From positions 609-5,829 of the forward strand of contig QNVH01000046.1 in NCBI GenBank assembly GCA_004347955.1: a stretch of DNA of 5,221 nt, in the 5' to 3' direction. Source of the DNA: Thermoproteota archaeon. GTDB lineage: Archaea; Thermoproteota; Methanomethylicia; Methanomethylicales; Methanomethylicaceae. Both the position numbers and the translations under genes were made by a program. Shown here in pieces: positions 2,330 through 5,221 of the stretch (position 1 is its first letter; each line of letters begins with the position of its first letter). Below the pieces are notes generated by a model that worked only from the letters and a program-made list of their open reading frames with translations, made no database searches and was not told the DNA's origin.

Positions 2330-3262
2330 TTAGATCCGGCAGATTATATCCTTCCTCATGTCGACGCACCCAATCAGTGCAAGGAGGACCCTCGCATCCT
2401 CGGTATTCACGACTCCATGGGCCCTCTCCCTCACCACGAGTTTTGGCTTATATCCAATGCCGAGCCCCACATTTTCTATCATGAAGAGGTCGTTTGCACC
2501 GTCCCCCACGGCCACACATGCCTCTAGGCCCACACCCACCTTGGCGGCGATGGTCTTTATCGCCTTGAGTTTTGCCTCAGGCCCGACCATCTCACCATCA
2601 ACCTCGCCCGTCAGGCGCCCACCCTTTACAATTAGTCGGTTGCTGAAGACATAGTCGGCGCCTATCATCCTGCCGACGTGCTCAGCGGCAAAATCAAAGC
2701 TGCCTGTCACGATCCCTATTACGAAGCCAAGTTCCTTGAGCTTCGCTATCAACTCTTTCACTCCTGGGTTGATTTTTATTGAAGATTTAATCTGATCCAG
2801 AACTTCGACCGGGAGACCTTCCAGTAGCTTGACTCTAGATCTCAGGGCCTCAAGGAAGTTCAACTTTCCATCCATGGCAAGCTTAGTGATCTTCTTAACC
2901 TCTTCGCCCACTCCCGCAGCCTTTGCCAGCTCCTCTATAACCTCCTGCTCTATTAGGGTCCCGTCAAGGTCGAATACTATGACCTTCTTTCCACACTTGT
3001 AGCTCTGGCAGGACTCTGCCGCCAGCGCCAACCCCACATCGTCACAGCTGTTCTTTAGTATGTTCAACAGGACGTCCTTCTTGACAATGGACGTCCTTGT
3101 GTCAACCACCATGATAATGACAAAGAGGTCGTTGAAAATAGTCGAAGCCCTGGTCTTTATTATGTTTGCATGAAGTCTGGCCAAGACTCCAGTCACAGTG
3201 GCAACTATGCCCGGACGGTCCCTTCCCAAGACCGTGATGACCAGCCTACCGTCCTCCGGCAT
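2330..3262 (-). CDS. serB: phosphoserine phosphatase with N-terminal ACT domain
   Basis: HAD-superfamily phosphatase that should hydrolyse phosphoserine to serine, the last step of the phosphorylated serine pathway. From ATG 3262 (310 residues), residues 6-85 form an ACT domain with the GRDRPGI turn, likely a ligand-sensing module. The HAD domain (92-310) has motif I DLDGT (nucleophile D98, acid D100) and E107 at the substrate-binding Glu position. R143 in LRSRVKLLEGLP, T186-G187 (motif II), K231 (motif III) and VGDGAND with D254, N257 and D258 (motif IV) complete the set. It matches Methanocaldococcus SerB closely as I remember it, including NRLIVKGGRLTGEV. TTG 3286 is in frame upstream, but GGAGGTG at 3273-3279 points to ATG 3262. 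The gene overlaps the ACT gene by 17 bases, suggesting coupled translation. Confidence 0.9.
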   Translation of the reverse strand: MPEDGRLVITVLGRDRPGIVATVTGVLARLHANIIKTRASTIFNDLFVIIMVVDTRTSIVKKDVLLNILKNSCDDVGLALAAESCQSYKCGKKVIVFDLDGTLIEQEVIEELAKAAGVGEEVKKITKLAMDGKLNFLEALRSRVKLLEGLPVEVLDQIKSSIKINPGVKELIAKLKELGFVIGIVTGSFDFAAEHVGRMIGADYVFSNRLIVKGGRLTGEVDGEMVGPEAKLKAIKTIAAKVGVGLEACVAVGDGANDLFMIENVGLGIGYKPKLVVRERAHGVVNTEDARVLLALIGCVDMRKDIICRI

Positions 3263-3503
3263 AGTAAAAAGACACCTCCAGCCCAAGCTCGTGGCACAGG
3301 TACTCTAGCTTCTTACGAAATGTGTCGAGATTAAGCCCGGCGGCAAGTTTAATGAGCACGGAAAGTATGAAGATACCCTTCATCACGACCTGGTCCATGT
3401 CCTCAATGTTGCACCCAAATTCGGAGATCACTGAGGATATCTCGGCAATTAAGCCAGGGCGATCCGGCCCAACAGCGGTTATAACCATGTACCTATCACG
3501 CAT
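3246..3503 (-). CDS. small stand-alone ACT-domain protein (UPF0237-like)
   Basis: An 85-residue protein made of one ACT domain: strand RYMVITAVG, the GPDRPGL turn (12-18), helix AEISSVISEF, the CNIEDMDQVVM strand, FILSVLIKL, a second helix and a last strand EVSFYY. ACT domains bind small ligands, usually amino acids, as dimers. The length and the NIEDMDQ segment resemble the UPF0237 family of free ACT proteins. It overlaps serB, whose own N-terminus is another ACT domain, so it may regulate or pair with SerB; this is inferred from position. Starts: GTG 3512 is possible, but ATG 3503 is better placed, with GGTG 6 bases upstream and a TATA element about 40 bases upstream. It is the first gene of the minus-strand series. 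Confidence 0.8.
   Translation of the reverse strand: MRDRYMVITAVGPDRPGLIAEISSVISEFGCNIEDMDQVVMKGIFILSVLIKLAAGLNLDTFRKKLEYLCHELGLEVSFYYAGGR
3273..3279 (-). promoter_or_regulatory. Shine-Dalgarno site of serB inside the ACT gene
   Basis: The minus strand reads GGAGGTG, 10 bases before ATG 3262 and within the last codons of the ACT gene. It lies downstream of the alternative TTG 3286, so it argues for the ATG as the serB start. Confidence 0.6.
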
Positions 3504-3537
3504 AGATTGCACCGGTGACCATCGAAGATTGTACAGA

Positions 3538-3589: not shown

Positions 3590-4222
3590 TTGAGCAAAGT
3601 TCGACTTGAGGCGCTCAAGGAGGCTCTGATCGAGCAGGATCAAAAGAAGGCAAAAGATCTCACAGAAGAATTTTTGCGAGCAGGGGTGCAGCCAAAGGAT
3701 ATAATTGATGTGATATCTGACGGGCTAAAGTTGGTTGGAGACCTATTTGAGAGGGGGGAACTCTTCCTGCCAGAGGTCATGAGGTCGGCCAACGCCGCCA
3801 AGGCCTCCTTGAGCGTTGTATTGCCAATGATGGTCAAGGAGAAGGCGGGAGAAGGGCGGGGAACGATCGCGATAGGTTCGCTTGGACCGCATGACATAGG
3901 AAAGACCATTGTATCATCCACGCTCATCGCAGATGGTTTCAAGGTGTTGGACATGGGCATAAACGTGACACCAGGTGCTGTGGAGGATTTTTTGAGAAAC
4001 AATGAGGTGGACATACTCGCCCTCTCAATTCTCCTCACCTCTGACATAGATAAATGTGCCAATGTGATAGAGAGGGCAAGGAAGGTCAGGAGCGGAATTA
4101 AGGTGATGGTTGGGGGCGCAGCGATGAGTCCGGAAACGGCAAGAAAAATAAAGGCAGACGCATACGGTAGAGATGCAAACGAGGCAGTTAAGATAGCAAG
4201 GGAGCTCACCGGGAGGAGGTAG
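3590..4222 (+). CDS. corrinoid (B12-binding) methyltransferase protein, MtaC/MttC/MtgC-like
   Basis: A 210-residue cobamide carrier that shuttles methyl groups between partner methyltransferases. Residues 1-85 are the helical cap domain with the typical LFERGELFLPEVM signature (52-64). Residues 90-208 are the B12-binding Rossmann domain: PHDIGK with lower-axial-ligand H101 and G104, then exactly 41 residues to S146-x-L148, then 26 residues to the GG pair (175-176), and YGRDA near the end. This spacing is canonical. Odd point: the DxHxxG aspartate is replaced by glycine (G99). The TTG start is fixed by an in-frame stop 4 bases upstream and a Shine-Dalgarno site. It heads a cluster with the MetE-like and MtrH-like genes, its likely partners. 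The methyl donor cannot be read from this protein, and no substrate-specific methyltransferase of the MtaB or MttB type is in the window. Confidence 0.92.
   Translation: MSKVRLEALKEALIEQDQKKAKDLTEEFLRAGVQPKDIIDVISDGLKLVGDLFERGELFLPEVMRSANAAKASLSVVLPMMVKEKAGEGRGTIAIGSLGPHDIGKTIVSSTLIADGFKVLDMGINVTPGAVEDFLRNNEVDILALSILLTSDIDKCANVIERARKVRSGIKVMVGGAAMSPETARKIKADAYGRDANEAVKIARELTGRR
4215..4220 (+). promoter_or_regulatory. Shine-Dalgarno site of the MetE-like gene
   Basis: GGAGGT overlaps the first base of the TAG stop of the corrinoid-protein gene and lies 7 bases before ATG 4228. Stop and start are only 5 bases apart, so the two genes are almost certainly on one transcript. Confidence 0.75.
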
Positions 4223-4227
4223 AGAGG

Positions 4228-5109
4228 ATGAAGACGACAGTCATTGGTAGCTACCCAGTCGTCGGCGAGGGGCTGGAGGCTATAAAAAACGCGGTGAAGG
4301 ATCAGCTAGATGCAGGGATCGAGATAATCAGCGACGGGCAGACTAGGAAGGACATGGTATGTTACTTTGCAGACCACATACCTGGGTTCAAGGTCGAGGA
4401 TGAGAAGGCGAAGATAGTTGGAAGGATAAGACCGCCAGAAGAAACGCCGGTGGTTGAGGACCTGATATTTGCCAGGGAGTTGGCAGGGAGTAGGGCTGAG
4501 GTAAAAGCAATAATTACTGGACCAGTCACAATGGTCTTCTTTTCAGAGCTGACGCCAGAGGCCCCCTACGCAGGGTTTCGGGACGAGAGGCTATACGAGG
4601 ACGTGAGCGCAGCCCTGGCAGTTGAGGCGGAGATCATGCAAAAATCGGGCTTTTTGAAGGTTCAGATAGACGAGCCCAGTTTTTCCATCGGGGCCCCCAT
4701 GAACATAGGGAGAAAGGTTCTCGAGGCGATTGTATCAGACTTGAAAGGAGTTAAGGCGTTACACGTCTGTGGAAACCTTAGGAGGGCCTTCAAGGAGATA
4801 GTGAAGATAGAGGGCTTTGACGTTCTGAGCTTCTCGTTCAAAGACAATGTGAGTAATTTTGACAATGTTGAGAGGAAGCTTCTTGAGGATTATTCAAAGA
4901 GGCTTGGCGTGGGGTGTGTGAGTACGATGAGTCCCGAAGCAGAGGACGTAGAGTCTATCAAGAAGGTGCTGAGTAGGGCGCTGGAGTTGTACGGGGTGGA
5001 AAACATTGAGTGGATCCACCCTGACTGTGGGCTGAGATCATTGAAGAGGGATGAGGCTTTCACCAAGCTCAAGAATATGGTGACGGCGGCTAAGGAGCTG
5101 AGAGTCTGA
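4228..5109 (+). CDS. short MetE-like (core methionine synthase family) zinc methyltransferase
   Basis: A 293-residue protein corresponding to the C-terminal catalytic barrel of cobalamin-independent methionine synthase, without the N-terminal half of bacterial MetE. Family marks in order are TTVIGSYP (3-10), IISDGQTRKDMV (33-44), IITGPVTM (95-102), QIDEP (146-150, D148 expected near the substrate amino group), LHVCG with H179 and C181, and HPDCGL with C267. H179, C181 and C267 match three of the four zinc ligands of E. coli MetE (H641, C643, C726). The fourth, E665, lies 22 residues after C643; here that place is S203. Short archaeal and Dehalococcoides relatives are folate-independent methionine synthases taking methyl from a corrinoid protein, which suits the adjacent corrinoid gene. 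The altered ligand leaves a different thiol acceptor, such as coenzyme M, possible. Its stop overlaps the next gene's ATG. Confidence 0.85.
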   Translation: MKTTVIGSYPVVGEGLEAIKNAVKDQLDAGIEIISDGQTRKDMVCYFADHIPGFKVEDEKAKIVGRIRPPEETPVVEDLIFARELAGSRAEVKAIITGPVTMVFFSELTPEAPYAGFRDERLYEDVSAALAVEAEIMQKSGFLKVQIDEPSFSIGAPMNIGRKVLEAIVSDLKGVKALHVCGNLRRAFKEIVKIEGFDVLSFSFKDNVSNFDNVERKLLEDYSKRLGVGCVSTMSPEAEDVESIKKVLSRALELYGVENIEWIHPDCGLRSLKRDEAFTKLKNMVTAAKELRV

Positions 5110-5221
5110 TGGTAGAAGTTCGCTTGGGAAATGTTAAATTTGGCGACGTCCCGGTCATGATAGGCAGCCTGTTCTACAAATCGGACAGAAAGGTCATAGA
5201 CCACAAGAAGGGCGAGGTGAA
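5109..5221 (+). CDS. MtrH-like methyltransferase, N-terminal fragment (3' end outside window)
   Basis: Only 37 residues are visible. The sequence VRLGNVKFGDVPVMIGSLFY followed by a KKGE segment resembles the beginning of MtrH, the subunit of tetrahydromethanopterin S-methyltransferase that moves methyl between the pterin and a corrinoid, and of the related MtgA-like enzymes; MtrH typically has a V-x-I-G start, a G-x-I/L-F-Y segment and DEKKG. The ATG at 5109 shares its A with the TGA of the MetE-like gene (TGATG), and GGAG lies 11 bases upstream, which suggests coupled translation. It stands beside a corrinoid protein and a thiol methyltransferase rather than with other mtr genes. The family call rests on a short stretch, but the context supports it. 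Confidence 0.72.
   Translation, partial: MVEVRLGNVKFGDVPVMIGSLFYKSDRKVIDHKKGEV

What the first reader, a model, noticed from the sequence alone, without database searches (positions are those of the whole stretch)
3590..5221. Corrinoid protein, MetE-like and MtrH-like genes in one tight cluster: a possible soluble pterin-to-thiol methyl transfer system
Seen: three genes with 5-base spacing and then a 1-base overlap, encoding a B12 carrier, a zinc thiol methyltransferase and the start of an MtrH-like pterin methyltransferase. Known: MtrH and MtgA move methyl between H4MPT or folate and a corrinoid; short MetE proteins in archaea and Dehalococcoides are folate-independent methionine synthases. 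Inferred: MtrH-like protein loads the corrinoid from methyl-pterin and the MetE-like protein delivers it to homocysteine or another thiol. This would be a dedicated methionine synthase or a soluble counterpart of the membrane Mtr reaction. The reverse direction, demethylating a methylated thiol, is equally open.
Basis: partly seen in the sequence, partly recalled or inferred. Interest (0 to 1): 0.78.

Follow-up and report, generated by a model that had tools for sequence, protein, structure and literature searches.

The report
Three-piece methionine synthase in methanogenic archaea
In a family of archaea thought to make methane, three tightly packed neighbouring genes (a vitamin B12 carrier, a zinc methyltransferase and a pterin methyltransferase) likely work together as a three-piece enzyme that makes methionine, rather than feeding methane production as has been suggested.

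Summary
The extended contig gives a complete MtrH-family gene (window 5109-5981), then two stand-alone Lrp/AsnC effector (RAM) domains. The host is a Ca. Methanomethylicia archaeon. In its family (22 genomes) corrinoid-MetE-MtrH-RAM-RAM lies on one contig in 18; the other 4 are cut by contig ends. MTHFR is found in 19 of 22 (0 of 18 other class members); Mer, FolD and MetH/BHMT-type domains over cut-off in 0 of 22; MtrA in 1 of 22. In three Asgard loci MTHFR, MetE-like and MtrH-like genes adjoin, and that MtrH is sister to this one. Best reading: methyl-pterin from MetV/MetF -> MtrH-like -> corrinoid -> MesA-like -> methionine, a MetH rebuilt from methanogenesis-type parts. This disputes readings of this mtrH as methanogenesis from unknown compounds; its co-location with metE is already in print (PMC7886697). 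Each protein lacks one canonical acidic residue. Against: HcyBio is missing in the host genus, a sister-family genome has the mtrH without metE, nothing is assayed.

The parts
3590..4222 (+). corrinoid (B12) shuttle protein, MttC/MtbC-like, 210 aa; carries L-G-P-H-D-I-G-K where related proteins have x-G-D-x-H-D-x-G-K
   Evidence: (TIGR02370 134 bits, under its 215 cut-off)
4228..5109 (+). core methionine-synthase-like zinc methyltransferase (MesA-like), 293 aa; S8/Q38/D148 homocysteine contacts, H179/C181/C267 zinc ligands, Glu ligand replaced by S203
   Evidence: (PRK00957 253.5 bits, cut-off 258)
5109..5221 (+). start of the MtrH-like pterin:corrinoid methyltransferase (full gene window 5109-5981 = L001 5717-6589, 290 aa, beyond the window's end)
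   Evidence: (MtrH 143 bits)
3246..3512 (-). ACT-domain protein, divergent from the cluster; same neighbour in 16 of the 17 named family loci (the 17th is cut by its contig end); linked, not shown to be part of the mechanism
2330..3286 (-). ACT-SerB phosphoserine phosphatase, divergent from the cluster; same neighbour in 16 of the 17 named family loci; a possible tie between serine supply and the cluster
   Evidence: (serB 229 bits, cut-off 144)

Best explanation
The three genes lie in one conserved cluster and are predicted to form a soluble, three-protein methionine synthase. Proposed steps, all inferred: MetV/MetF (encoded elsewhere in the genome) reduces a methylene-pterin to methyl-pterin; the MtrH-like TIM barrel moves the methyl to Co(I) of the corrinoid protein; the methylated corrinoid docks on the MesA-like zinc enzyme, which transfers the methyl to zinc-bound homocysteine; a genome-encoded RamA-type activase rescues Co(II). 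Shown here: gene order and its conservation, family membership by profile, co-occurrence with MTHFR, absence over cut-off of the alternatives searched (Mer, FolD, S-methyl_trans in the whole family; MtrA in all but one family genome), and conserved homocysteine-contact and zinc residues apart from the Glu ligand. Not shown: which pterin (THF or H4MPT), the acceptor, and any activity. The two RAM proteins downstream may sense an amino acid; that is a guess.
Against: HcyBio (archaeal homocysteine synthesis) is found in only 5 of 22 family genomes and 0 of 4 of the host genus, so homocysteine supply is unresolved there. The Glu zinc ligand is Ser/Ala in all 21 trio rows (20 distinct loci); Price et al. 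[quoted passage not shown] The MtrH-like protein lacks a pterin-contact Asp and the corrinoid lacks the Asp of DxHxxG. The sister-family genome G009 (91% complete) has the MtrH ortholog without corrinoid or MetE upstream and without MTHFR. The MTHFR co-occurrence within the class is one clade, so it counts as one observation; the Asgard loci are the second. Of the 63 fetched MesA-relative loci outside the family, 57 show no MtrH in the flanks held, and 3 of the other 6 show it only about 3 kb away.
Confidence: 0.75

Rival explanations
1. Methanogenesis module: the cluster demethylates an unknown methylated thiol or other compound and passes the methyl on, to CoM or to a pterin, for methane production.
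For: This is how isolated mtrH genes next to corrinoid and methyltransferase genes in these archaea are read in PMC6783470 and PMC10033731 (passages). L013 comes from LCB019-004, one of the MAGs of PMC10033731; the one MtrH found in G015, which I take for the same genome from its equal contig length, is the one in this cluster.
Against: No MttB-like gene in L004-L020 by tblastn, and none of the genes annotated on the host contig is a substrate methyltransferase; MtaB and MtmB were not sought. The zinc protein is MetE-like with conserved homocysteine contacts. Moving methyl to a pterin has no oxidative outlet by Mer (0 of 22 over cut-off) and none to CoM by Mtr (MtrA 1 of 22).
Confidence: 0.1
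2. Dual use: the corrinoid and MtrH-like protein serve methionine synthesis and also take methyl groups from another methyltransferase encoded elsewhere, as MtgC and MtgD do in Ruegeria pomeroyi.
For: Precedent in PMC12478193 (abstract and passages). Methanomethylicia genomes are reported to encode several corrinoid methyltransferases (PMC10033731, passage).
Against: In 18 of 22 genomes corrinoid and MtrH are joined to MetE, with no MttB-like gene in the named loci. The corrinoid's changed motif, constant in 19 distinct loci, may mean specialised partners.
Confidence: 0.12
3. The MesA-like protein takes methyl from another corrinoid protein and the CoP-MtrH pair serves a different anabolic acceptor; the co-location reflects shared regulation only.
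For: CoP-MtrH pairs without metE exist in Bathy-6 (PMC7886697, passages); G009 has the MtrH ortholog without MetE.
Against: Overlapping or closely spaced genes in most of the 20 rows measured and one order in all family genomes where it can be read; the MtrH next to MesA in the Asgard loci is sister to this one.
Confidence: 0.08

Closest known systems
Split cobalamin-dependent methionine synthase of Phaeobacter inhibens / Ruegeria pomeroyi (MtgC, MtgD, MtgE)
   Same: Separate proteins for pterin, B12 and homocysteine modules; proposed direction methyl-pterin -> B12 -> homocysteine (PMC12478193, abstract and passages).
   Different: There the homocysteine module is MtgE, homologous to a Bhmt; here S-methyl_trans is absent over cut-off and the modules are MtrH-family, MttC-like and MesA-like, encoded side by side.
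Core methionine synthase MesA (Methanothermobacter METE and orthologs)
   Same: Length, fold, Ser/Gln/Asp homocysteine residues, His/Cys/Cys zinc ligands; PRK00957 at 253.5 bits against a cut-off of 258.
   Different: Glu zinc ligand is Ser/Ala; grouped with Asgard and Chloroflexota rows apart from the rows with euryarchaeal MesA (100/99). MesA is predicted to use MtrA (PMC7857596), which is not detected in 21 of 22 family genomes.
MtrH of the Mtr complex; MtgA of Desulfitobacterium hafniense
   Same: Same Pfam family, 143 bits; best solved matches are the MtgA entries, E 2.5e-37; three of four pterin residues kept.
   Different: The fourth pterin residue (Asp102 of MtrH) is Gly, as in 5 further rows of the family seen; NCBIfam MtrH and MtgA cut-offs are not reached; no other mtr gene in the cluster.
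CoP-MtrH couple with metE in Ca. Methanomethylicus mesodigestum, noted by Loh et al. 2021
   Same: The same kind of gene neighbourhood, described in PMC7886697, which raised an anabolic role (passages).
   Different: There it is a remark on gene location; distribution, MTHFR link, residue changes and a mechanism were not in the passages I read.

Membership tests
MesA core methionine synthase | Catalytic MetE domain alone, no N-terminal folate domain | tested here: met
   293 aa, Meth_synt_2 135 bits over residues 17-289; Meth_synt_1 only 21.4 bits, under its cut-off of 27
MesA core methionine synthase | Homocysteine contacts Ser/Gln/Asp (MesA type, PMC7857596) | tested here: met
   S8, Q38, D148; constant wherever aligned in 84 rows (row L104 has gaps at the first two)
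MesA core methionine synthase | Zinc ligands His, Cys, Glu, Cys | tested here: not met
   H179, C181, C267 kept, but the Glu is Ser (8) or Ala (13) in 21 trio rows; Glu in 44 of 44 rows of the remaining, mostly euryarchaeal, group. Filed only as MesA-like
MesA core methionine synthase | About 40% identity or more to the characterized MesA, METE_METTM (PMC7857596) | not tested
   that sequence was not at hand; euryarchaeal relatives in L030-L083 are 36-42% identical
MesA core methionine synthase | NCBIfam PRK00957 equivalog cut-off | tested here: not met
   253.5 against 258 bits
MtrH / MtgA family (PF02007) | Pfam MtrH profile over cut-off | tested here: met
   143.4 bits, cut-off 22.8
MtrH / MtgA family (PF02007) | Four pterin-contact residues Asp102, Asn128, Asp195, Asn229 (PMC10998594, passages) | tested here: not met
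   Asn, Asp, Asn kept; Asp102 is Gly in all 19 distinct trio MtrH, in G009 and in 5 further rows. Mapping by motif columns; the Methanothermobacter sequence itself was not aligned
Mtr complex (Na+-pumping, MtrA-H) | MtrA partner | tested here: not met
   MtrA over cut-off in 1 of 22 family genomes, own genome 0
MttC/MtbC-type corrinoid protein | B12-binding_2 plus B12-binding domains | tested here: met
MttC/MtbC-type corrinoid protein | D-x-H-x-x-G motif (motif recalled) | tested here: not met
   His and Gly kept, Asp replaced: LGPHDIGK in 21 of 21 trio rows, 19 distinct loci
Split cobalamin-dependent methionine synthase | Separate pterin, B12 and homocysteine modules | tested here: met
   three genes by profile; that the zinc protein's substrate is homocysteine is inferred
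Split cobalamin-dependent methionine synthase | Methionine made from homocysteine | not testable with these tools
   needs enzyme assay or genetics

The most novel reading that the evidence does not exclude
A separately evolved kind of methionine synthase: an obligate three-protein machine with its own dedicated corrinoid shuttle, fixed in the ancestor of the host's family, which does without Mtr and Mer, in which the carrier, the zinc enzyme and the pterin enzyme each lack one canonical acidic residue, and two stand-alone RAM domains gate the flux.
Probability: 0.35. Interest if true: 0.75.

Novelty: new variant of a known kind. Interest (0 to 1): 0.62.

Why it matters
How archaea without Mtr, Mer or a recognised MetH charge a core methionine synthase is open: PMC7857596 predicts MtrA or CoFeSP as donors for the families it treats. 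This cluster offers a concrete, testable donor route. It also weakens one argument for methanogenesis from unknown methyl compounds in Methanomethylicia, since in 21 of 22 family genomes searched the only MtrH gene found is the one in this cluster (G025 has a second).

Full report
What is there. The window is bases 609-5829 of contig 49 of a 1.16 Mb, 80%-complete, 107-contig genome. The whole contig completes the third gene to 290 aa (window 5109-5981), and it is MtrH family (143 bits). Two further genes follow in the same direction, each a bare Lrp/AsnC effector (RAM) domain of 76 and 77 aa. The closest named relatives of the MetE-like protein are Candidatus Methanomethylicia archaea, the former Verstraetearchaeota.

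Conservation. Of 80 loci fetched with a MetE-like alignment (495 relatives found, best 80 kept), 17 are Methanomethylicia (L004-L020). Fifteen of these carry corrinoid, metE, mtrH, ram1 and ram2 in that order and strand; L012 and L016 are cut by contig ends. Counting whole genomes, 22 of the 40 held genomes of the class belong to the host's family f1; all 22 have the MtrH, and all five genes lie on one contig in 18, while G013, G016, G021 and G023 are cut by contig ends. L004-L020 and 17 of these genomes are the same by equal contig length. Divergent serB and an ACT-domain gene flank the cluster in 16 of the 17 named loci. dN/dS against two relatives is about 0.05-0.09 for the three main genes, 0.01-0.02 for ram1 and 0.06-0.18 for ram2.

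Host inventory (40 class genomes; 22 in f1, 18 outside). Strong Meth_synt_2: 21 of 22 in f1 (98-130 bits); outside f1 only partial matches of 42 bits or less in 11 of 18. S-methyl_trans over cut-off: 0 of 40, one weak match in G015. MTHFR: 19 of 22 in f1, 0 of 18 outside; the three f1 genomes without it are 59%, 77% and 73% complete. In the six f1 genomes whose MTHFR neighbourhood I read, a 208-239 aa ORF adjoins it; in the two that were scanned this ORF matches PF12225, methylene-THF reductase C terminal (the name MetV is recalled). Mer over cut-off: 0 of 22 in f1, 10 of 18 outside, with one sub-threshold f1 match in G018. FolD over cut-off: 0 of 22, 5 of 18. MtrA: 1 of 22, 6 of 18. RamA-type RACo_C_ter: 22 of 22, 10 of 18. 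HcyBio: 5 of 22, 0 of 4 in the host genus, 6 of 18 outside f1. The MTHFR pattern separates one clade from the rest, so it is a single evolutionary observation; the independent support is in Asgard archaea, where MTHFR, MesA-like and MtrH-like genes sit side by side in L022-L024 (two Baldrarchaeota records and one titled Odinarchaeota; Pfam was run on L022 only).

Trees. MtrH (89 rows): the f1 MtrH form one clade (99/98); joined by the G009 ortholog (100/100, a long branch, so its place is less sure) and then by the MesA-adjacent MtrH of L022-L024 (98/94), apart from the mtrA-linked MtrH of G025 and the Methanocellales loci and from the other class MtrH. MesA-like (59 rows, after I dropped 22 euryarchaeal loci, mostly Methanomicrobiales, from 81): the 18 Methanomethylicia rows group with 9 Asgard and 10 Chloroflexota rows (100/99), apart from 22 rows with the euryarchaeal MesA and a few others.

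Residues. Homocysteine contacts Ser8, Gln38, Asp148 and zinc ligands His179, Cys181, Cys267 are kept; the Glu ligand of MetE is Ser (8) or Ala (13) in 21 trio rows, one row (L118) being a copy of L016; Ala in 8 of 9 Asgard rows (Glu in L021); Ala or Gly in 10 of 10 Chloroflexota rows; Glu in 44 of 44 rows of the rest (row L104 has gaps at the first two sites). Two rows, L103 (fragment) and L150 (copy of L010), were left out of that count. The corrinoid has LGPHDIGK in 21 trio rows, 19 distinct loci, where the five Asgard MttC-like rows have EGDIHDLGK. The MtrH-like protein has Gly where MtrH Asp102 is expected, with Asn128, Asp195 and Asn229 equivalents kept, in all 19 distinct trio MtrH; the Gly is also in G009 and in P0221, P0228, P0229, P0231 and P0236 (residue roles from PMC10998594, passages). 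In the MtgA entries, 6sjo differs from 6sj8 at that Asp and 6sjp at the Asn (alignments). The losses may mean altered chemistry; none is proof of inactivity, and purifying selection argues for function.

Mechanism. The most economical reading is a disassembled MetH: MtrH-like in place of the folate domain, MttC-like in place of the cobalamin domain, MesA-like in place of the homocysteine domain. Methyl-pterin would come from MetV/MetF, not Mer. The flux likely runs toward methionine because methyl-pterin has no oxidative outlet by Mer in the family. The divergent serB hints that serine is the C1 source; that is inference. All catalytic steps are predicted.

Literature. Price et al. 2021 (PMC7857596; abstract, passages, sections 7 and 11) define MesA-D and predict MtrA as donor for MesA; my term search found no mention of MtrH, Verstraete- or Methanomethylic- in its text. 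Deobald et al. 2020 (PMC7005905, passages) recount an old proposal naming MtrH as a candidate partner of core MetE. Loh et al. 2021 (PMC7886697, passages) already note CoP-MtrH next to metE in Ca. Methanomethylicus mesodigestum and an anabolic option. PMC6783470 and PMC10033731 (passages) read such mtrH as methanogenesis from unknown compounds; LCB019-004 of the latter is the source of locus L013, whose mtrH is in this cluster. A split methionine synthase is shown by genetics in marine bacteria (PMC12478193, abstract and passages). Among the papers these searches gave, of which I read passages of ten to eleven, none assigned this cluster to methionine synthesis with such data; most subscription papers are not held.

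Limits. No assay, no coordinates of the zinc site, incomplete host genome, homocysteine supply unresolved, and one sister-family genome (G009) with the MtrH ortholog but no strong MesA match and no MTHFR.

Noticed in passing
L001 6607-6837 and 6839-7072 (window + 608; beyond the window): Two stand-alone Lrp/AsnC effector (RAM) domains without a DNA-binding part end the cluster in every family genome whose contig reaches that far; ram1 is the most conserved gene of the five.
   Followed up: partly
L152 133-996 (G009, sister family): Ortholog of the cluster's MtrH without corrinoid or MetE upstream; a thioredoxin-like and a TatD-like gene lie next to it, divergent. What follows it is cut by the contig end.
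   Followed up: partly
L030, L033, L040 about 1546-6909: In three Methanocellales/Methanosarcinales MAGs an isolated mtrA-mtrH pair lies about 3 kb upstream of a MesA gene, with a methanogenesis marker 14 gene between, fitting the published MtrA-to-MesA prediction.
   Followed up: partly
L029, L034, L035, L039, L042: In five Jord/Frey/Sigyn Asgard loci the MesA-like gene is convergent with an MttB-like gene and a corrinoid gene.
   Followed up: no
L151 7036-8735 (G025): One family member carries an extra, more canonical mtrA-mtrH pair away from the cluster.
   Followed up: no
L001 5830, 6103, 6508, 6716: Single N bases in the contig, three in mtrH and one in ram1; the first lies immediately after the window's end.
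   Followed up: no
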